From Leisingera sp. ANG-M1 (GTDB lineage: Bacteria > Pseudomonadota > Alphaproteobacteria > Rhodobacterales > Rhodobacteraceae), in contig NZ_JWLC01000029.1 in assembly GCF_000813745.1 (NCBI RefSeq), forward strand, positions 1 to 64,000: 64,000 nt of DNA. The letters run 5' to 3'. This document shows, one piece after another, positions 50,485 to 60,030 of the stretch. The notes under the pieces were generated by a model, which did no database searches, had not been told where the DNA came from, and was given only the letters and a program-made list of their open reading frames with translations. Positions within the stretch are counted from its first letter, which is position 1. Each line of letters starts with the position of its first letter. A program made the position numbers and the translations under genes.

Positions 50485-50913
50485 AGTCCCACTGAACGTG
50501 ATGCTAACCTTCTTCTACTTAATCGAGTCAGTCGTAAGGAAACCGCGTGCTTTCAGCGGTTGTGAGAGTACATATGCAAGAAACACCCGTTGCCCTTTTA
50601 TTACGTTGAAGTCTTTTACTTTGGCGGCCAGAGCAGGCAAACGCAGCATCTAACCTGCCCTCTTTACAAGAAATTTAACGCATAGCAGCGCTCAGATATC
50701 GGCAGCTTTGCACAGGAAACGGAATTTGCAGTATCCTGCGATACTCACTTGGGCGTCCGCCCAGGTCTGACCGAGTGCCACAGAACAGCTTTGGCATTGC
50801 CGCCGTCCATGCCTCGCGCAGCATTTCTGAAGGCCGTAGAGTCGCCCTGCGAATCTTCCCACATAATCTCTGCAAGTTCAATATGTTGGCACCATGATGG
50901 GTTATACCGGTCG
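50485..50913. other. Intergenic region left of the IS3 remnant
   Basis: No complete gene. Short frames on the minus strand continue past the point where transposase similarity stops (about 50914) but match nothing. The DNA is likely the old flank of the element. Confidence 0.4.
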
Positions 50914-51564
50914 CGATGCATGATCCATCGTTCATCCAGAGCTGCCCTTTCTTCGATTGTTTAGACGGCACCTTCAGCCCCTCCCGCCGCCACAGCCGCT
51001 CGATCCGGCCGCCACGGACCTGACAGGCTGCATCTCGCGGTAATGCTGCAATCCAACGATAGCCGTATCGGCCGTATTGCCTGGCCAATTCGGTCATGTC
51101 GGCAACCAGCCGCTCTTTCGCCCTTGTACTCGAACCAAAGGCGCATCAATGGCTCATTCTCCCCGGCCCCTTGGACGCTGCCGCTGTGTCGAGCGATGTT
51201 GTCCGAGCACGCGGCAGAGCCGGCGCTCCGATACCTTCATCCCGCTACGGATCAGCTCAGTGCAGGTTCGGCGACGAGCGGGGCTCAGGGGCGCCGCCCG
51301 TTCAGCTTCCTTCAGGATGTGCTTTTCCAGCGTCAGGTCCGACACAGCCTTTCTCAGCCGCTCGTCCTCTTTCCGGAGACGCATGAGTTCCTTCAGTTGG
51401 TCGGCTCCCGTTCCACCATACTGCTTGCGCCAGCGGTAGTAGGTCTGCTCCGTGATGCGAACCTCCCGGACCGCATCAACTCGCGCCATTCATTGCCCGA
51501 CCAGCACATCAACCTGCCGCAGCTTCTGAACTATTTCCTCAGGCTAGTGCCGCTTGTTCGTCAT
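50914..51564 (-). mobile_element. Broken IS3-family element (IS407-like orfA and part of orfB)
   Basis: The minus strand from ATG 51564 reads MTNKRH-stop-PEEIVQKLRQVDVLVGQ-stop-MARVDAVREVRITEQTYYRWRKQYGG, an OrfA with two in-frame stops. It runs on in frame through LTLEKHILKEAE into OrfB (LSPARRRTC, SERRLCRVLGQHRSTQR). A frameshift follows, and the next OrfB part (RQYGRYGYRWIAAL, RIERLWRREGLKVPSKQSKKG, LWMNDGSC) ends abruptly at about 50914. The integrase core (DDE) is missing, so the element cannot move. A complementary OrfB piece lies at 36155-36420. It borders the YcaO locus. Confidence 0.8.
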
Positions 51565-51797: not shown

Positions 51798-53003
51798 ATG
51801 CCTGAAGCGGCGCGAAAGACCTATTTGCTCGACACACATCGCCTGCGCGACCCGGCGCAGACGCTGGAGCAGGTCAGGCCGCATCTCGCCAGCATGGGCA
51901 TAACCCGCATTGCCAATCTGACCGGGCTTGACCGCATCGGCCTGCCAGCCGTGATGGTCACCCGGCCGAATTCCCGTTCTGTCGCGGTCGCCTTGGGCAA
52001 GGGGTTGTCGCTAGAAGCCGCGCAGGCGTCGGGGGTTATGGAGGCAATCGAGACCTGGCATGCCGAGCGGGTTTCCTTGCCGCTTCGCCTGGCAAGCCTG
52101 ACGGATCTGGAACAGGAGGTGCAAGTTGCGGATGTTGAGCGCTTGCCCCGGGTTGCCGGGAGCCGTTTTGATCCGTACCGGCCCATGCTATGGATAGAAG
52201 GCCATGATCTTGCTGGCCAAACTTCCCGGTGGCTGCCTTACGAGATGGTCGATACGGACTACACCACGCCGCCCCGCGGCGGGCAAGGGGCATTCCCGCG
52301 CTCCACCAACGGGCTTGCCTCGGGCAATGATGCATTGGAGGCTGCCTGCCACGCAATTTGCGAGCTGATTGAGCGGGACGCCACCACGCTTTGGCATTAC
52401 TCAGATTCGAAACCGCGCATTGACCCGGATACGGTCGACGATCCCCGCTGCAGGCAGGCGCTTGACCGCTTGGCAAGGGCCGGAATCGAATTCGGGATCT
52501 GGGAAACAGCGACCGACGTTGGTGTTGCCTGCTTTCATTGCGTCATTGGTGAGGGAGGCAGCCAGCCCGGCCATATCGGTATTGGCGACGGCTGCCATCC
52601 TGACCGTTCCATAGCGCTGCTGCGGGCCGTGACCGAGGCGGCGCAGACCCGGCTTACTTATATTTCGGGAGCACGCGACGACCTGGATCCAAACGAGTTC
52701 ACAGCAGAGGCTGTCGCAACACGGGGGCAATATATCCGCGGCTTGATCCGCTGTACTCAGCCGACAGAGAGCTTCCAGGATTGCCCGAGTTTCAGCTCGC
52801 CATCCTTTGAAGAGGACCTGGATTGGCTGCTAGAGCGCCTGAATTCCGCTGGGATAAATCAGGTTCTGATCGTCGACCTGTCCCGCCGCGGCATGGGCAT
52901 TGCTGTGGTGCGTGCATTGATACCGGGCCTGGAGGCGCCGCACGACGACCCGGATTTTGTCCCTGGTCCGCGCGCGCAGCAAGTGATGGAGGCGGCGGGA
53001 TGA
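51798..53003 (+). CDS. YcaO-family ATP-dependent peptide-modifying enzyme
   Basis: From ATG 51798 the protein is 401 residues; in-frame starts at 51708 (TTG) and 51729 lack ribosome sites. The YcaO nucleotide/Mg2+ region is visible: GVMEAIETWHAER near 78, STNGLASGNDALEAACHAICELIERDATTLWHY in two halves near 175-205, and ALLRAVTEAAQTRLTYISGARDD near 275. These enzymes activate a backbone amide with ATP to make azolines, thioamides or amidines in peptides. The protein ends without the PxPxP tail common in azoline-forming cyclodehydratases. It overlaps a tfuA gene by 4 bases; YcaO-TfuA pairs are the known thioamide-forming combination. Confidence 0.9.
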   Translation: MPEAARKTYLLDTHRLRDPAQTLEQVRPHLASMGITRIANLTGLDRIGLPAVMVTRPNSRSVAVALGKGLSLEAAQASGVMEAIETWHAERVSLPLRLASLTDLEQEVQVADVERLPRVAGSRFDPYRPMLWIEGHDLAGQTSRWLPYEMVDTDYTTPPRGGQGAFPRSTNGLASGNDALEAACHAICELIERDATTLWHYSDSKPRIDPDTVDDPRCRQALDRLARAGIEFGIWETATDVGVACFHCVIGEGGSQPGHIGIGDGCHPDRSIALLRAVTEAAQTRLTYISGARDDLDPNEFTAEAVATRGQYIRGLIRCTQPTESFQDCPSFSSPSFEEDLDWLLERLNSAGINQVLIVDLSRRGMGIAVVRALIPGLEAPHDDPDFVPGPRAQQVMEAAG

Positions 53004-54346
53004 CTGCAATTGTCTTTGCAGGCCCAACCATTGCGGCGGTCGAAGTCAGGGCACTGATTGATGCGAAGGTTCTGCCTCCAGCCGGTCAGGGGGATATCTA
53101 CAGGGCAGCCCGGGAAAAACCGTCTGTCATTGGCCTGATCGACGGGTATTTCGAAGGCGTTCCATCGGTCCGGCACAAGGAAATTCTCTGGGCGATGGAG
53201 CAGGGAATTGCGGTTTTTGGCAGTGCCAGCATGGGGGCTTTACGGGCCGCTGAACTGTCCGTTTTCGGTATGACCGGTGTTGGCCGTATCTTTGAAGACT
53301 ACGCATCCAGCCTGCTGAGCGACGATGACGAAGTGGCGGTTCTTCACAGCCCGGAAGAGCTCGGTTTCAAGCCGCTGAGCGAACCTATGGTTTCGATCCG
53401 TGCAACTGTTGAGCATGCGGCCAGCGAGGGGTTGCTGGCAGCTGATGAGGCTGCGCAGCTGATAAACACTGCAAAAGCGCTTTTTTACAAGGATAGGACC
53501 TGGGACAGAATTCTGGAGGGGTTCGGGGACGCCCATTGGCACAGTGTGTTCTCGAACTGGCTGCCGGCAGGGCGCATTGATGCAAAGCGCCAGGATGCGT
53601 GTGAGATGCTGGCGCAGATGTCAGCATTTCTGACCGGCGATGCGCGCGGCAGGGGAGTGCCGGGGCACCGGGTCGAGCGCACGCTTGCCTGGCAGAAACT
53701 GGCAAGCCGCGTCGAAGCAGAGAATACAGGCGTGCAAAAGGGTTCACGCGGCCTTCTTGACGAATTGCGCCTTGACCCGGAGCGCTATGCCGGCTTCCGC
53801 ACAAAGGCCGCTCTTCGCGTACTGGCGCTGCAGAGAACGGAAGGTACGGCAAAGCGCATCGAACACGCAGCACTTTTGGATCTAATGGCCCGCCACCGTG
53901 CTGCTAGGGGGCTGTCTCAAAGCCGCGTCTTGCAACATTGGCTGCGAGAGAACGGATTGGACGGAACAGGATACGAAGAGTTGCTCCGGGACACTCTCTG
54001 CGCAGAGGAAACGGTAAGCGCTCTTGGGAACCACCTGGACCCGCATATTCTGGCCGAACTCCGGTATGCGGGTGCTTATGCGGGTTTGCAGGAACGCGCG
54101 AAGGAAAAAGAACAGAGACTGCAAAAGATGGACGCAGCAGCAGACAGCTTGCCGGGTGCGGACAAACTGCAGGTACTAATCTGGTACTTTGAAACCCTGT
54201 TGGGCCGCGAGACGCCTTCAAACCTCGATTCCCATGCGAAATCCATCGGTCTTGCAGACGCCGAAGAATTCTATGCGCTGATCACCCGCGAATTCATGTA
54301 TCATCAAAGCTGCATAAACCAGCCAGCGGCGGGAAAAACGGAATAG
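53000..54346 (+). CDS. TfuA-family partner protein of YcaO
   Basis: A 448-residue protein whose first 200 residues are a TfuA domain: IVFAGPTIAAVEV, GDIYRAAREKPSVIGLIDGYFEG near 34-56, RHKEILWAMEQGIAVFGSASMGALRAAEL near 60-88 in parts, and FEDYASSLLSDDDEVAVLH. The remaining 250 residues are a helical extension of no known family, longer than in trifolitoxin TfuA. TfuA proteins are thought to supply sulfide or assist YcaO in thioamidation. The start overlaps the ycaO stop (ATGA), so the two are made together. Confidence 0.9.
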   Translation: MTAIVFAGPTIAAVEVRALIDAKVLPPAGQGDIYRAAREKPSVIGLIDGYFEGVPSVRHKEILWAMEQGIAVFGSASMGALRAAELSVFGMTGVGRIFEDYASSLLSDDDEVAVLHSPEELGFKPLSEPMVSIRATVEHAASEGLLAADEAAQLINTAKALFYKDRTWDRILEGFGDAHWHSVFSNWLPAGRIDAKRQDACEMLAQMSAFLTGDARGRGVPGHRVERTLAWQKLASRVEAENTGVQKGSRGLLDELRLDPERYAGFRTKAALRVLALQRTEGTAKRIEHAALLDLMARHRAARGLSQSRVLQHWLRENGLDGTGYEELLRDTLCAEETVSALGNHLDPHILAELRYAGAYAGLQERAKEKEQRLQKMDAAADSLPGADKLQVLIWYFETLLGRETPSNLDSHAKSIGLADAEEFYALITREFMYHQSCINQPAAGKTE

Positions 54347-54385
54347 GCAGGAGATACAGGGGACACAGCGGTTTTGGAGGGACCC

Positions 54386-55684
54386 ATGTACAACCCTGAT
54401 GATTTTGACGAAGAGGCCCCGGGCACCCGATTCCTTTTGTTCCCGCAGGCACCGTTCCGCAAGCCGGATGCCGTTCCCGAACTGGTTGAAATCTCCGCAC
54501 CGCGGGGCAGCATCGACCCGGGGCCGTCGGGGCCGCGCATGTATACCGTCAACCCGGTGGGTAAACGTATCCCCTACGGCGCCCTCATAGACCGCCCGGC
54601 AGGCACTGGCATGTATCTGCCGCCTTGGGATGGCTATATTCAGCCGCCGCCCGAACCGGATCAGTTCGGTAATTTCAGCCATATCCTGCCATCCGATCCT
54701 GCATTTGAAGCAGCGCATCTGTTTGGCGCGGCGCATTTCACCATGGATGTCTGGGAAGGGTACTTCGGCCACCCGGTACCCTGGCACTTTGCGCGGGATT
54801 TCGAGCGGCTGGAACTGTCGCTTTTGCCCAGTCTGGATAATGCCCATATCGGCTGGGGCTTTCTGGAAACCGGCGGCACCAGCGAACATGGAGGCGAATA
54901 CCGCGCATACAGCCTGAATTTTGATGTTGTTGCCCATGAGATCGGCCACGCCATCATCTACAGCGTGGTGGGGATGCCGCCCTCGGAGGATGTGCCCGGT
55001 GAATATTACGGTTTCCATGAATCTGCGGCTGATATGGTCGCGCTGCTTGCATCCCTGCATTTTGGATCTGTTGTCGAAGAACTTCTGGAGAACACCCGGG
55101 GCAATTTGTACACGTTCAATCAACTCAGCCGGTTTGCAGAGCTTTCCGGAAACGCCCAGATCCGGATGGCGGCCAATACCCGGACCCTGCCGGAATTCGC
55201 GCATGGCTGGACCAGCGAGCACGCGCTGTCGGAACCCCTGACCGGCGCGATGTTCGACATCTTTGTCGATATCTTCCACGAAAGGCTGCTGGTTCAAGGG
55301 CTGATCACGCCGGAAATGGAGGACCTCTCGGACCGGCTGGAGGAAACGCCTTACTACAGCGACGTCATGCAAGCGCTTTTTGATGCCCGCTATGCGCTTG
55401 ATCCCGAAGGTTTTCGCGTGTCCTTGCTGGAGGCCCGCGATTTCCTAGGCTCTTACCTGGCCGATGCCTGGAGCCTGCTGGAAGCGAAGAACCTCACGTA
55501 TTCAGCCGTCGAACAGGCGCTGCTGGCTGTGGATGCTGATATCACCGGCGGCGCCTTCCGCACGATCATTGCAGGCAATTTCAGAATGCGCGGCATCGGG
55601 CTGGTTCAAGCCGGCCCCCGCCTTCAGTCCGCCGATGATACAAGCCACGCGGTTTCGGTTCGCACCCGGGTGCCCGAATGGTAG
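54386..55684 (+). CDS. HExxH zinc metallopeptidase (gluzincin-like) in the YcaO locus
   Basis: With the ATG at 54386 (GGAGGG six bases upstream) the protein is 432 residues. Zinc-site residues are FDVVAHEIGHAIIYS near 186-200 (HEIGH) and the third ligand in GFHESAADMVALLAS near 213-227 (ExxxAD), a thermolysin-like gluzincin layout. The N-terminal 170 residues are rich in proline and carry a PPWDGYIQPPPEPDQFG stretch. No signal peptide is seen, so it acts in the cytoplasm or is exported by a dedicated path. It is encoded between tfuA and the repeat-peptide gene, fitting a role in cutting the leader or between repeat units. Confidence 0.82.
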   Translation: MYNPDDFDEEAPGTRFLLFPQAPFRKPDAVPELVEISAPRGSIDPGPSGPRMYTVNPVGKRIPYGALIDRPAGTGMYLPPWDGYIQPPPEPDQFGNFSHILPSDPAFEAAHLFGAAHFTMDVWEGYFGHPVPWHFARDFERLELSLLPSLDNAHIGWGFLETGGTSEHGGEYRAYSLNFDVVAHEIGHAIIYSVVGMPPSEDVPGEYYGFHESAADMVALLASLHFGSVVEELLENTRGNLYTFNQLSRFAELSGNAQIRMAANTRTLPEFAHGWTSEHALSEPLTGAMFDIFVDIFHERLLVQGLITPEMEDLSDRLEETPYYSDVMQALFDARYALDPEGFRVSLLEARDFLGSYLADAWSLLEAKNLTYSAVEQALLAVDADITGGAFRTIIAGNFRMRGIGLVQAGPRLQSADDTSHAVSVRTRVPEW

Positions 55685-55831
55685 AGATTCAATAACCTTT
55701 AAATTCCAACCTTTTTGTGGCATTTTATTTGCAGGGGGACTTTCTCGAACAATCGGGCGCGCACGTGTTTCGGCTCAAGCATTGGGAGAAAATCTTCTGG
55801 TGTTGTTTTCATAGCCACGGGAGTGAGTAAG
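55685..55831 (+). other. A/T-rich leader before the repeat-peptide gene
   Basis: 147 bases with lower GC than the flanks (TTCAATAACCTTTAAATTCC, then TTTTTGTGGCATTTTATTTG). It may hold a separate promoter, which would allow the peptide to be made in excess over its enzymes. I cannot assign -35/-10 boxes firmly. Confidence 0.4.
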
Positions 55832-56374
55832 GTGGCCGAGACGTTACTCAGTTTTTCAGAAGTGTTACTATTCGGACGTTTGGTGAAGGACCTGAAGATC
55901 AAGGACAGGGGCCGGGGAGAGCGTTGCGGCGACAACGGGTTTCTTGCAAAACAGCTGCAAGAAGGAACGGATCCACGGCTCGCCCGCATCTACGGGTTTT
56001 CCTATGAAGGCGCCTATCATCAGCTGCCTGAGCCTGTCATCCTGCTGGTGCACGGTAAAGGGGAAGACGCTTTTGCTGACAGCGGCGAATTCGCCCGCTC
56101 GCCATTGAGCCCTTCTAAATCAGGTGTTGCTGCGGCGGATTTCCAGATGGCCGACAAGGTCAAGGTCTGGGAATACGACAAGGCTGACTACACAATACGC
56201 ATGGACCTGATGACCGGCATGCTGGAGCAGGTTTTGCTGGACGTGTACTTCGGGTCAGCTGGCCCAGCCGTCAGCGGTGCCAAAGTGAGTGGCGCCAAGG
56301 TTAGCGGAGCAAAGGTAAGCGGAGCCAAAGTTAGCGGCGCCAAGGTAAGCGGTGCTAAGGTCTCGGGCGACTGA
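55832..56374 (+). CDS. Candidate RiPP precursor with C-terminal VSGAK repeats
   Basis: From GTG 55832 (GGGAG eight bases upstream) the protein has 180 residues; the frame is open further upstream, so the exact start is uncertain. Residues 1-146 would be a leader or carrier part: SEVLLFGRLVKDLKIKD, ARIYGFSYEGAYHQLPEPVILL, FQMADKVKVWEYDKADYTIRMD and GMLEQVLLDVYFG. Then come six exact VSGAK units and a final VSGD before the stop. I know no described family with this tail. Ser and Gly in each unit are possible targets for YcaO chemistry. It follows ycaO, tfuA and a metallopeptidase on the same strand, hence the precursor call; a structural or surface protein with a low-complexity tail is the alternative. 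Confidence 0.7.
   Translation: MAETLLSFSEVLLFGRLVKDLKIKDRGRGERCGDNGFLAKQLQEGTDPRLARIYGFSYEGAYHQLPEPVILLVHGKGEDAFADSGEFARSPLSPSKSGVAAADFQMADKVKVWEYDKADYTIRMDLMTGMLEQVLLDVYFGSAGPAVSGAKVSGAKVSGAKVSGAKVSGAKVSGAKVSGD
56270..56371 (+). repeat. Six in-frame 15-bp repeats encoding VSGAK, plus VSGD
   Basis: Units are at 56270, 56285, 56300, 56315, 56330 and 56345 (15 bases each), then GTC TCG GGC GAC. The protein unit is identical every time, but the codons differ: Val is GTC, GTG, GTT, GTA, GTT, GTA, GTC; Ser is AGC, AGT or TCG; Gly, Ala and Lys vary as well. Identical protein with varied codons shows selection on the peptide and argues against a fresh slippage artefact. Confidence 0.95.
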
Positions 56375-56398: not shown

Positions 56399-56850
56399 TC
56401 AGAAACCGACTTTCTTCAGCCCTTCGGTAAAGTGCTGCGTGTCTTCCTCCAGGCGGTCGGGCCGCACCCTGGCCCGGCGCTCCAGCGCGAAATTCAGATG
56501 TGCCTCCTGGTGCTTCCGGCCATTTCCTGTGCCAGGTCCATTCGGCCGAGATGGGCAAAGCCGGCCGCAAGCATCCTCTGAAGCGCGCGTTGAGAGACCG
56601 CTCTGAGCCGGGTATCCGGGTAACCACCTAGCCAGAGATTCCAAGCGGAACGAAGCCTGCATACGACGCCTGCGCTGTCGTCGTGCGCAGCAACTTCCGA
56701 CCGGCGCAAATGCTCTGAAAGAGCATCGTCAGTGGCTAGGAGTTCTATAGTTTGGGAGCGGTGCCCTAATGTGATAGTATTCGGCACAAGTTGCGTTGAG
56801 GCCAGTTCGAGCGGGTTCATTTGCTCTGAAAGGGACGTAGCTGCCATGAT
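56399..56850 (-). pseudogene. C-terminal remnant of an adenylate-cyclase-type TPR protein
   Basis: The minus strand reads SAWNLWLGGYPDTRLRAV and LAAGFAHLGRMDLAQEMA, then after a frameshift near 56520 RKHQEAHLNFALERRARVRP and HFTEGLKKVGF-stop. This is the usual end of class III cyclase/TPR proteins (LWxLGYPD, AxLGRxEEA, EGLRKAG). The catalytic part is missing and there is no start. It separates the repeat-peptide gene from the beta-propeller gene and overlaps the start of the latter. Confidence 0.6.
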
Positions 56851-58165: not shown

Positions 58166-59290
58166 ATGGCAGAGCAGCGCTGGATTGCGGCAGTCGCGGC
58201 GGCGGTTGCCATGGGAGGCGGAGCATTCTTCGCAGTAGGGGCGCTTCGGCCAGATCCGACGCCGGTTGCGGGGTTCTCGGCCCCGTTTGTGTTCGGGCGG
58301 TTTTCGGTACCGCAGGACAATCCGCTGACCGAGGAGGCATTTGCCCTCGGGCGGCGGTTGTTTTACGATCCTTTGCTTTCCGGCGGCAACGACCGGTCTT
58401 GCGCAACCTGCCACATCCAGCGGCTTGCTTTCACAGACGGCCTCCCCAGAGCTGCCGGACTGGATGCTGAAGATCTGGACTTCAGCAGCATGAGCCTGGT
58501 GAACCTGCTGTGGGGGCAGGAACGATTTTTCTGGGACGGCAGAGCTCTCGGCCTAGAGCAGCAGGCCCTGCTTCCGATTCAGAACCCCAGGGAAATGGCG
58601 CAGGATCTGGAGGGGCTGGTCAGCGAACTTAATGGCTCCCGCCGATACCGGCGGATGTTCCGGCAGGCGTATGGGGATGTGTCATCCGAGAACATCGCGC
58701 GTGCGCTGGCCACTTTCATGCGAATGCTCATCTCCGCCGATTCAAAATATGACCGCTTCCTTCGCGGCGAGGCGAAGCTGTCCGAGCAAGAGGAACTGGG
58801 CCGCAAGCTCTTCATGGCCCATCCGGACACCAAGGCTTCGCTTCGCGGCGGCAATTGCATCGACTGCCACAGCCAATTCCTCACTTCCGGGTTCCGGGAC
58901 GGTCTGGATGGATTTTCCAACAACGGTTTGGATAGGGACGAAGACTTGCCCGCCGGATTAATGGCAGTCACCGGCAACCCGGCGCATAAGGGCTTCTTCA
59001 AAGTGCCAACCTTGCGCAATATCGCCGTGACAGCCCCTTATATGCACGACGGGCGCCTACGGACGCTTGAAGACGTGATGGACCACTACAATGACGGGGT
59101 GGTGGTCAGCGACACGCTGAGCCCCCTCATTCTCGAAGCCGATAACACCACTTCTCCGCCTGGCCCCTTTGTGGGATTGCGCCTGACGGACGATGAGAAG
59201 GCCGCAATCATAGCCTTTCTCCATACGCTGACGGACGAGGCGTTTTTGTCAGATGACCGGTTTTCCAATCCATTTGAAGGAGAGACGTGA
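58166..59290 (+). CDS. mbnH: MbnH/MauG-family di-heme cytochrome c peroxidase-like enzyme
   Basis: A 374-residue protein with an N-terminal membrane/signal segment (AAVAAAVAMGGGAFFAVGAL) and two heme c sites, C79-A-T-C-H83 and C231-I-D-C-H235, as in MauG/BCCP proteins. Further motifs are LGRRLFYDPLLSGGNDRS before the first heme and VPTLRNIAVTAPYMHDGR near 275. MbnH oxidises a tryptophan of its partner MbnP to kynurenine through a bis-Fe(IV) state. The gene overlaps the mbnP-like gene by 4 bases. No mbnB/mbnC-type methanobactin genes are present, so this is an MbnH/MbnP pair outside a classical methanobactin operon. Confidence 0.87.
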   Translation: MAEQRWIAAVAAAVAMGGGAFFAVGALRPDPTPVAGFSAPFVFGRFSVPQDNPLTEEAFALGRRLFYDPLLSGGNDRSCATCHIQRLAFTDGLPRAAGLDAEDLDFSSMSLVNLLWGQERFFWDGRALGLEQQALLPIQNPREMAQDLEGLVSELNGSRRYRRMFRQAYGDVSSENIARALATFMRMLISADSKYDRFLRGEAKLSEQEELGRKLFMAHPDTKASLRGGNCIDCHSQFLTSGFRDGLDGFSNNGLDRDEDLPAGLMAVTGNPAHKGFFKVPTLRNIAVTAPYMHDGRLRTLEDVMDHYNDGVVVSDTLSPLILEADNTTSPPGPFVGLRLTDDEKAAIIAFLHTLTDEAFLSDDRFSNPFEGET

Positions 59291-60030
59291 TGCCTGCGGT
59301 GAAGCCGCAATTCATCAACATCTTGCTGGTTTCCCTGCTGGGGCTCACCGCTTGGCACGCCATTTGGAAACCGGGTCCGCCATCCAATCAGCTGCGGCTC
59401 GTCTTTACAGCAGAGGCCGACGGAGAGGATCTGGTCTTCGATCAGTTCCTGTATAAAAACCCAAGCGGGCCGGGGCAATTCAGAGTGCAGAACTTCCGCT
59501 TTTATATCAGCAATATTCAGCTTTCCGGAGAAGACGGGGCCTATGTTGAGCCTGACAGCTACCACTTGGTCCGGTTCGGCAGCCAAAACAAAGATTTTTC
59601 GATTGAGCTGAGCAATGTTCCGTTGAAATCATATTCCAGCCTCGCCTTTTCGGTCGGCATAGATGAACCAGCGAACTCCTCAATCGAACCGCGCGGCGAC
59701 CTGGATCCAAACAGCCAAATGGCCTGGAACTGGGAAGTCGGCTACAAATTCGTTGTGTTCGAGGGCAGCCTGAAAATGGGCGAGGGCATCCAGCCTTTGG
59801 TTTACCATGTGGGCTTTAACGAAAACCGTCGCGACCTCCTGTTCACTCGGCCCATGGAAGAGGACCTTAGCGGTACGAGTGAGGTGAGTTTCAAAGTAGA
59901 CGTCATGAAACTGTTTGACAGCGCATCCGTATTGAACCTGGCGCAATTGCAGTCGGTGAAGTTTGACCGTCAGGACGCAAGAGTGCTGGCGGAAAACTAC
60001 TCCAGAATGTTCTCCATCGAAGAAAATTGA
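59287..60030 (+). CDS. mbnP: MbnP-family periplasmic copper-binding protein
   Basis: A 247-residue protein with a signal-anchor start (PQFINILLVSLLGLTAWHAIW). The MbnP fold shows as FRVQNFRFYISNIQLS near residue 66, the diagnostic MAWNWEVGYKFVVFEG near 145-160 and YHVGFNENRRDLLF near 172. Trp147 or Trp149 is the candidate for conversion to kynurenine by MbnH, a step that in the methanotroph protein creates a copper site. It overlaps mbnH and ends the operon. Copper binding is inferred from family. Confidence 0.85.
   Translation: MMPAVKPQFINILLVSLLGLTAWHAIWKPGPPSNQLRLVFTAEADGEDLVFDQFLYKNPSGPGQFRVQNFRFYISNIQLSGEDGAYVEPDSYHLVRFGSQNKDFSIELSNVPLKSYSSLAFSVGIDEPANSSIEPRGDLDPNSQMAWNWEVGYKFVVFEGSLKMGEGIQPLVYHVGFNENRRDLLFTRPMEEDLSGTSEVSFKVDVMKLFDSASVLNLAQLQSVKFDRQDARVLAENYSRMFSIEEN

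What the first reader, a model, noticed from the sequence alone, without database searches (positions are those of the whole stretch)
51798..56374. Probable new RiPP locus: YcaO + TfuA + metallopeptidase + repeat-tailed precursor
Seen: a YcaO protein overlaps a TfuA protein by 4 nt; 39 bases later comes a HEIGH metallopeptidase, and 147 bases after it a 180-residue protein ending in six VSGAK units and VSGD. Known: YcaO-TfuA pairs install thioamides (or assist azoline formation) on ribosomal peptides, and such loci carry a precursor and a protease. Inference: the repeat protein is the precursor and each Ser/Gly of the repeat is a possible modification site. I recall no described RiPP class with a VSGAK core.
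Basis: partly seen in the sequence, partly recalled or inferred. Interest (0 to 1): 0.92.

Follow-up and report, generated by a model that had tools for sequence, protein, structure and literature searches.

The report
Repeat-tailed peptide precursor with YcaO-TfuA
A conserved gene set in marine and soil bacteria appears to make, modify and cut out many copies of one very short peptide from a protein whose tail repeats it; the chemistry is untested.

Summary
The window's four genes (ycaO, tfuA, HExxH metallopeptidase, VSGAK-tailed protein) belong to a conserved locus. A scan seeded with the repeat protein gave 80 kept loci: 70 hold ycaO, 72 tfuA, 72 the peptidase, 75 a class III cyclase, 60 a GNAT. 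Of 67 with the first three, 66 share one gene order.

Tails are tandem 5-7-residue units, nearly uniform within a protein but different between lineages. Adjacent units differ at 1519 synonymous and 85 non-synonymous codons. Four arrays lack Ser/Thr/Cys, so azolines cannot be the shared chemistry. Most tail Lys/Arg follow a small residue, as at the thioamide of thiovarsolins.

Best reading: a new multi-core, probably thioamidated RiPP-type locus releasing short, possibly N-acetylated peptides. Not shown: thioamide, cleavage, product. Against: Rhizobium loci keep repeats, peptidase and cyclase without adjacent ycaO-tfuA; Paracoccus loci lack an adjacent peptidase; no transporter or ThiS gene is conserved beside it. 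The window kept only a cyclase remnant; an intact GNAT-cyclase pair lies elsewhere in its genome.

The parts
51798..53003 (+). YcaO enzyme, 401 aa; nearest solved structure MJ1094 (6PE3), an archaeal YcaO
   Evidence: PF02624 E 1.2e-81; TIGR03266 226 bits, below its 365 cut-off; 6PE3 E 7e-34; an E..E..ERD block and other residues conserved in at least 97% of 76 relatives
53000..54346 (+). TfuA partner, 448 aa, with a C-terminal extension of about 230 aa
   Evidence: PF07812 E 2.9e-47; NF033432 206 bits, below its 235 cut-off; 6XP8 E 9.9e-32
54386..55684 (+). Metallopeptidase, 432 aa, HEIGH at 54935-54949 plus an invariant Glu 24 residues after the second His (gluzincin-like)
   Evidence: H184, E185, H188, E212 invariant in 33 of 33 aligned homologues; only weak M12B, M4 and M36 Pfam hits
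55832..56269 (+). N-terminal domain (residues 1-146) of the precursor-like protein, proposed leader
   Evidence: conserved ARIYGFSYEG, VWSYDKAD and GxFEQVLL blocks in the consensus of 41 homologues; no solved-structure match within it except one at E 1.8
56270..56371 (+). Repeat tail (VSGAK)x6 + VSGD, proposed multi-copy core with an acidic end
   Evidence: 75 of 80 homologues end in Asp or Glu
56402..56580 (-). Remnant of the C-terminal end of the locus's class III cyclase gene
   Evidence: 79% and 70% identity pieces to the L025 cyclase; intact 92% identical copy with a GNAT on another contig, G000:C45

Best explanation
The locus makes a multi-core ribosomal peptide. The 180-aa protein has an N-terminal domain that serves as leader or scaffold, and a tail carrying six to seven copies of one pentapeptide. 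YcaO, with TfuA delivering sulfur (probably from thiocarboxylated ThiS), most likely installs backbone thioamides in the tail units, plausibly at the small residue before each Lys/Arg. The neighbouring HExxH peptidase then cuts the tail into short identical peptides, and the locus GNAT (now on another contig in this genome) acetylates them. The class III cyclase with TPR repeats belongs to the same circuit, as regulator or as receiver. Shown: gene order, conservation, catalytic motifs, selection on the repeats. Inferred: substrate identity, thioamide, cleavage, acetylation, role of the cyclase.
For: Linkage: of 80 loci found through the repeat protein alone, 70 have ycaO, 72 tfuA, 72 the peptidase; 66 of the 67 with all three keep one order on one strand. 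Tail: nearly uniform within proteins, different between lineages; 1519 synonymous against 85 non-synonymous codon differences between adjacent units in the 80 loci; all units differ together between sister loci L032 (Lys) and L030 (Arg), as expected if all copies must give one product. Chemistry: the YcaO scores best with the McrA-thioamidation model, though below its cut-off, and its best solved relative is archaeal MJ1094; arrays with no Ser/Thr/Cys exist beside ycaO and tfuA in L073, L086 and L095; 574 of 601 Lys/Arg in the last 50 residues follow Ala, Gly or Ser, against 535 of 1874 in the rest of the proteins (repeated units are not independent). Thiovarsolins come from a repeating core, are N-acetylated, carry a Pro-Arg thioamide and depend on VarY/VarT (PMC6511847, passages). 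Two ThiS-family genes lie in the genome. GNATs with different best Pfam models occur in the locus (4 tested).
Against: No product, thioamide or cleavage has been observed. The three Rhizobium plasmid loci inspected (two of the 51 plasmid records that match the repeat protein; R. etli p42c through the peptidase search) keep cyclase, peptidase and an imperfectly repeated SRSGG tail with no ycaO or tfuA in the stretch; G817 has no tfuA in an 88%-complete genome yet keeps GRSSG repeats, so the tail has a use without thioamidation there. None of five Paracoccus loci has the peptidase beside it, and the genomes of L091 and L096 give no match to it. No transporter cluster occurs in more than 17 of 88 loci, no small ORF family in more than 7 of 80, and no relative of the genome's ThiS-type proteins in the 80 loci. 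An RRE was not sought. The protein is longer than usual RiPP precursors. GNAT is detected in only 60 of 80 loci.
Confidence: 0.57

Rival explanations
1. Protein thioamidation in place: YcaO-TfuA thioamidates the tail but the tail is never excised. The modified protein itself works, as with McrA thioglycine or ribosomal protein uL16, and the peptidase does another job such as maturing or removing the domain.
For: The N-terminal domain is long and conserved; the YcaO scores best with the McrA-type model; YcaO acts on intact proteins elsewhere (PMC13063428 and PMC5589413, passages); no exporter is conserved.
Against: Six to ten nearly identical contiguous units in most loci, which change sequence together, fit many copies of one product better than one structural site; a peptidase is linked in 72 of 80 loci.
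Confidence: 0.2
2. The tail is a short pentapeptide-repeat beta-helix (Rfr fold), A-K-V-S-G standing for the usual A-(N/D)-L-x-x, and is not modified at all.
For: 13 of 41 homologues match PF00805 at E up to 0.01, best 1.8e-7; the profile matches designed pentapeptide-repeat structures, E 1.6e-8; 60 of 80 tails fit a relaxed rule.
Against: The window's tail is below the Pfam cut-off; 20 of 80 related tails break the rule, 7 of them by a period of 6 or 7; 6-7 repeats are under two coils (four repeats a coil, recalled); it does not explain ycaO-tfuA.
Confidence: 0.09
3. YcaO-TfuA and the repeat protein are neighbours but not enzyme and substrate: the cyclase, peptidase and repeat protein form a signalling unit, and YcaO-TfuA modifies another target.
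For: Rhizobium-type loci have the three without ycaO-tfuA; the cyclase is the most constant partner, 75 of 80.
Against: ycaO and tfuA are in operon order with peptidase and repeat protein in 66 loci; tail type is clustered on the YcaO tree, 18 changes against 39.4 in shuffles, though shared descent alone gives this.
Confidence: 0.1
4. Linear azol(in)e peptide: YcaO cyclodehydrates the Ser of each unit to oxazoline with TfuA as partner.
Against: The repeat arrays of L073, L086 and L095 (with ycaO and tfuA) and of L099 (with tfuA, contig cut before it) hold no Ser/Thr/Cys; no E1-like or dehydrogenase gene was recognised among the listed neighbour clusters.
Confidence: 0.04

Closest known systems
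Thiovarsolin locus varA-varY-varT (Streptomyces varsoviensis; PMC6511847, passages read)
   Same: Adjacent YcaO and TfuA; precursor with repeated cores; a small residue (Pro there) before Arg at the thioamide; product released as a short N-acetylated peptide
   Different: Here the units are contiguous, 5-7 residues, 6-10 copies in 72 of 80 loci, on a protein of about 165-312 aa; peptidase, GNAT and cyclase are linked to the locus; the heme oxygenase, ATP-grasp, amidinotransferase and MFS genes of var were not recognised among the conserved neighbours
YcaO-TfuA of methanogens (McrA thioglycine; PMC5589413, passages read)
   Same: Best-scoring YcaO model and best solved relative; ycaO-tfuA overlapping genes
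   Different: Below both equivalog cut-offs; bacterial; co-encoded repeat protein and peptidase
Thioamidated RiPP clusters surveyed by Malit et al. 2021 (PMC8120280; part 1 of 6 of the text and passages read)
   Same: Proteobacterial YcaO-TfuA loci were already counted there, so this locus may sit in that catalogue
   Different: Precursors there were sought with RiPPER at standard settings, whose default window is 20-120 aa (PMC6511847); no word beginning with repeat occurs in its main text; supplements not seen
Pentapeptide repeat proteins (PF00805)
   Same: Five-residue tandem period in 73 of 80 loci
   Different: Period and register are not conserved across relatives; few repeats
RRNPP quorum systems of Bacillota (recalled)
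   Same: Short peptides from a longer precursor; a TPR protein encoded beside it
   Different: Here the TPR domain is on a class III cyclase; a YcaO-TfuA pair is present; no sequence relation was tested

Membership tests
YcaO-TfuA thioamidated RiPP locus | Adjacent ycaO and tfuA genes | tested here: met
   4-nt overlap in the window; YcaO 70 and TfuA 72 of 80 loci
YcaO-TfuA thioamidated RiPP locus | Intact YcaO ATP/Mg motif residues | tested here: met
   E..E..ERD block and others conserved in at least 97% of 76 YcaOs; their role is recalled
YcaO-TfuA thioamidated RiPP locus | Co-encoded precursor with leader and variable core | tested here: met
   conserved domain plus lineage-specific tail; that it is the substrate is inferred
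YcaO-TfuA thioamidated RiPP locus | Short precursor (20-120 aa by the usual mining window) | tested here: not met
   180 aa here, over 300 in some relatives
YcaO-TfuA thioamidated RiPP locus | Thioamide in the product | not testable with these tools
   needs mass spectrometry
Thiovarsolin family | Repeated core in the precursor | tested here: met
Thiovarsolin family | VarO/VarL/VarP/VarS-type genes | tested here: inconclusive
   not recognised by eye among neighbour clusters of 8 or more loci; no profile search was made for them
McrA-glycine thioamidation proteins (TIGR03266, NF033432) | Score above the equivalog cut-off | tested here: not met
   226 of 365 and 206 of 235 bits
Linear azol(in)e peptide | Ser/Thr/Cys in every core | tested here: not met
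   four of 80 repeat arrays have none (L073, L086, L095, L099); the window's own unit does hold Ser
Pentapeptide repeat protein | Pfam PF00805 above cut-off and five-residue register | tested here: not met
   12.5 of 20.2 bits in the window; 20 of 80 tails break the register rule
Gluzincin (M4-like) metallopeptidase | HExxH and a downstream Glu ligand | tested here: met
   invariant in 33 of 33
Gluzincin (M4-like) metallopeptidase | Family profile or fold match | tested here: inconclusive
   weak Pfam hits only; fold prediction failed and was then switched off

The most novel reading that the evidence does not exclude
The locus is a modified-peptide second-messenger circuit. Thioamidated, protease-stable short peptides made from the repeat tail are ligands for the TPR domain of the co-inherited class III cyclase, so that peptide level or import sets a cyclic nucleotide signal. 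This would join a RiPP to cAMP or cGMP signalling. Support: the cyclase is the most constant partner (75 of 80 loci); in 70 of 73 loci its best match among seven cyclases of the window's genome is the same one; in the other three (L088, L097, L100) a 1115-aa protein replaces it, in L088 with SAM, cyclase and AAA/STAND domains; the window's genome kept an intact GNAT-cyclase pair after the locus was split. Nothing here tests binding.
Probability: 0.12. Interest if true: 0.92.

Novelty: new variant of a known kind. Interest (0 to 1): 0.72.

Why it matters
It would add a multi-core precursor family, spread over many alphaproteobacterial and a few other genomes, to the YcaO-TfuA world; its proteins are longer than the default length window of the mining tool used in the surveys read here. 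Its homogeneous yet lineage-specific units offer a ready series for testing which residue YcaO-TfuA modifies, and the linked cyclase makes a tie between modified peptides and nucleotide signalling directly testable in environmental marine bacteria.

Tried and rejected
Structure of the precursor domain and of the peptidase: both AlphaFold jobs failed by interruption, so no fold search was made and the leader domain's fold is unknown. Profile searches against solved structures gave, for the precursor, matches to pentapeptide-repeat proteins over the tail and one at E 1.8 in the domain; for the peptidase, short matches to repeat designs and one at E 0.71.

Azoline chemistry as the shared step: rejected on arrays without Ser/Thr/Cys. 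In an earlier tally L097 and L100 also counted as free of them, but only by their commonest unit; other units of theirs hold Thr or Ser, so they are left out. A beta-helix tail as the shared feature: rejected on period and register. A thermolysin-type cut before the unit's hydrophobic residue, or a trypsin-like cut after Lys/Arg, both remain open: the commonest unit holds a hydrophobic in 79 of 80 and a basic residue in 76 of 80; G817's GRSSG repeats lack the hydrophobic. A promoter between peptidase and precursor was considered; a TTTTGTGGCA-like box is shared by most of 15 aligned loci, and the promoter and terminator scan found no more than shuffles, so nothing is claimed. ThiS beside the locus: a first test used the wrong strand and is void; the repeat with the right strand found no relative in the 80 loci at E up to 1 (single sequences, so a distant one could be missed).

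Literature: nine searches. YcaO+TfuA+RiPP+thioamide (14 papers); YcaO+TfuA+rhodobacter (1); tail strings VSGAK, VSGAR, VSGAKVSGAK, GMSARGMSARG, VSGARVSGAR (57 papers hold at least one; papers with more terms rank first and the 20 listed hold one each, so none holds a doubled VSGAK or VSGAR; 37 were not seen); RiPP+YcaO+Ruegeria (1); precursor peptide+YcaO+pentapeptide+repeat+thioamid (3); TfuA+Mesorhizobium (2); TfuA+YcaO+metallopeptidase+multiple core, three of four (1); RRNPP+adenylate cyclase+TPR (0); RiPP+adenylate cyclase+YcaO (3). Passages only were read of PMC6511847, PMC13063428, PMC5589413 and PMC8939145; of PMC8120280 part 1 of 6 and passages; of the rest the search listing. Supplements and most subscription papers were not available, so an earlier description cannot be excluded.

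Rows dropped before counts: one search kept the best 80 of 113 confirmed stretches; one search used 75 of 76 YcaOs (L013 left out, same species as L091); one search used the 73 cyclases over 500 aa of 75 and seven of the eleven cyclase matches of the window's genome. Alignment A2 used 41 precursors and A3 33 peptidases, chosen for diversity. L085 is counted as lacking ycaO although one search shows a piece at the contig edge.
Full report
What is there. The four genes lie exactly as described. YcaO and TfuA are firm family members. The YcaO scores best with the McrA-thioamidation model among NCBIfam models, though below its cut-off (226 of 365 bits), and its best solved relative is MJ1094 (6PE3), E 7e-34; the TfuA is related to solved TfuA 6XP8, E 9.9e-32. 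The peptidase has no curated family at cut-off, but HExxH and a downstream Glu are invariant in all 33 homologues aligned. The repeat protein matches no curated family at cut-off. The window looks like a Leisingera genome: the nearest relative of the repeat protein, 98% identical, is in Leisingera sp. ANG-Vp, and the locus region aligns at 86.6% over 4954 bp.

The locus is conserved. In 394 genomes of the same family the window's repeat protein matched 10, the window's own included. Regions of the other nine were read: six show all four genes, three (G102, G239, G303) only weak or tail-like matches. Of 113 confirmed stretches the best 80 were kept; three of them (L034, L038, L103) are the same sequences as query rows. 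By ORF assignment 70 hold YcaO, 72 TfuA, 72 the peptidase, 75 a class III cyclase and 60 a GNAT (map). 67 hold the first three, and in 66 the order ycaO-tfuA-peptidase-precursor on one strand is kept; the exception, L093, has the peptidase first. Clustering ORFs of 80 aa or more in 88 loci found no other family of comparable reach: apart from frames that overlap these genes, the largest were an ABC-ATPase cluster in 17 loci, a regulator in 13 and an ABC permease in 10, scattered in place, and a Crp/Fnr regulator in 9. No family of smaller ORFs outside the locus genes is in more than 7 of 80 loci. So no transporter is conserved beside the locus.

Exceptions. Eight of 80 lack tfuA nearby. L062, L065, L066 and L067 come from contigs cut in or just before the peptidase or precursor; of their genomes L062's has three tfuA, L066's one, L065's none, and L067's was not searched. 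L037, L041 and L043 have tfuA (54-56%) and the peptidase (80%) about 18 kb away on the same contig, on the other strand. L068 has none in its 3.7-Mb assembly. In plasmid records 51 match the repeat protein, 49 of them Rhizobium, and 154 match the peptidase, 121 of them Rhizobium. Three Rhizobium loci were inspected (L012, L015 and R. etli p42c, L180): cyclase, peptidase and repeat protein are together, with no ycaO or tfuA within the stretch; the record of L015 holds two more distant TfuA genes elsewhere, and chromosomes were not searched. In 297 genomes of a second family 20 matched a Rhizobium repeat protein; 17 of the 20 have tfuA, in 16 on the same contig as the match; G807 and G912 (weak matches, E 8.3e-4 and 3.1e-4, whose loci give no precursor hit) and G817 have none. 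At least seven of these 20 are also among the 80 loci, so this is only partly independent. G817 keeps cyclase, peptidase and GRSSG repeats. The five Paracoccus loci have ycaO-tfuA-precursor without a neighbouring peptidase; the genomes of L091 and L096 give no match to the peptidase, and L090's gives a 36% one on another contig. The tails of L091 and L096 have only 2-3 imperfect units, L090's has more.

The tail. All tails were read. In 80 loci the period is 5 in 73, 6 in six and 7 in one, and 72 have 6-10 copies. Comparing codons of adjacent units, 791 are identical, 1519 differ synonymously and 85 non-synonymously (80 loci; 1580 against 91 when eight further loci are added). The segments were chosen by amino-acid periodicity, which lowers the non-synonymous count, but they cover most of the repeat part. 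So these are not recent duplications: the residues are held by selection while the DNA diverges. Tail type is clustered on the YcaO tree (18 changes, shuffles 39.4), which shared descent alone would also give. Sister loci L030 and L032 carry seven [V/I]SGAR and seven [V/I]SGAK with largely different codons: all copies differ together. 75 of 80 proteins end in Asp or Glu. In the last 50 residues 574 of 601 Lys/Arg follow Ala, Gly or Ser, against 535 of 1874 in the rest. L102 (SGANLG) and three Paracoccus loci have no Lys/Arg in the commonest unit. Seven genomes carry a second type of locus with a single, non-repeated tail of the kind RSPTMYASxMxMGHRGGRL; TfuA, peptidase and precursor are together in all seven, and YcaO in the two where it was sought.

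Partners. The cyclase keeps two metal-type Asp and an N..R pair in at least 97% of the 81 sequences with a residue there (roles recalled). In 70 of 73 loci its best match among seven cyclases of the window's genome is the one on contig C45, 92% identical to L025's; the next paralogue is 32% identical. The other three loci (L088, L097, L100) carry a 1115-aa cyclase protein directly before ycaO; in L088, the one scanned, it has SAM, cyclase and AAA/STAND domains. In the window only a C-terminal remnant of the cyclase is left (56402-56580), while an intact GNAT-cyclase pair sits on C45. Four GNATs scanned have different best models, Acetyltransf_3 in L025 and Acetyltransf_7 or _1 in L091, L073 and L102.

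Mechanism. Thiovarsolins give the model: a repeating precursor, YcaO and TfuA both needed, thioamide between Pro and Arg, product an N-acetylated tripeptide, with protease and acetyltransferase assumed to come from the host (PMC6511847, passages). Here both are plausible locus members. TfuA is said to use thiocarboxylated ThiS (PMC13063428 and PMC8939145, passages); two ThiS-family genes are in the genome, none beside the 80 loci. Thioamide rather than azoline follows from arrays with no Ser/Thr/Cys beside ycaO-tfuA. My odds: tail is the YcaO-TfuA substrate 0.75; thioamide 0.65; cut into short peptides 0.55; N-acetylated 0.4; cyclase responds to the peptide about 0.12.

Novelty. YcaO-TfuA loci in Proteobacteria were counted before (PMC8120280, part 1 and passages), so the enzyme pair in such genomes is not new. 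That survey used RiPPER at standard settings, whose default precursor window is 20-120 aa, so proteins of this length would not be retrieved. I found no description of this precursor family in nine searches (listed under Tried and rejected). I file it as a new variant of a known kind.

Noticed in passing
window 58166-60030: MbnH-like di-haem protein (TIGR04039 E 1.8e-73, below cut-off) followed by an MbnP-family copper protein (PF20243 E 1.3e-38), preceded by a 473-aa protein with only weak SBP56 similarity; no such cluster shows among the conserved neighbours of the repeat locus.
   Followed up: partly
window 50675-51489: Transposase-related fragments (HTH_Tnp_1 E 1.7e-6 and a weak HTH_21 match) just upstream of ycaO.
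   Followed up: no
L038 9599-10480 and other long precursors: Many homologues are about 275-312 aa and carry an insert of about 100 aa near the N-terminus; in L038 it matches a phage head-decoration family (phrog_2647, E 2.2e-7). The window's protein lacks it.
   Followed up: partly
window 55685-55831: A TTTTGTGGCA-like box is shared by most of the 15 aligned peptidase-precursor gaps.
   Followed up: partly
L182 (Azospirillum lipoferum AZO_p4): A different ycaO-tfuA pair also lies near a nucleotide cyclase and a Crp/Fnr regulator, so a cyclase link may be wider than this family.
   Followed up: no
L006, L007, L107-L110, L112: A second locus type with TfuA, peptidase and precursor, whose tail is single and conserved (RSPTMYASxMxMGHRGG-like) instead of repeated.
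   Followed up: partly
L012 10600-10932, L015 8588-8908 and L180 8001-8318: A small gene (no Pfam match for the L012 copy) follows the repeat protein in the three Rhizobium loci without ycaO-tfuA.
   Followed up: no
L037, L041, L043: In three Leisingera-type contigs the tfuA and peptidase lie about 18 kb from the precursor on the opposite strand, as if one inversion had split the locus.
   Followed up: partly
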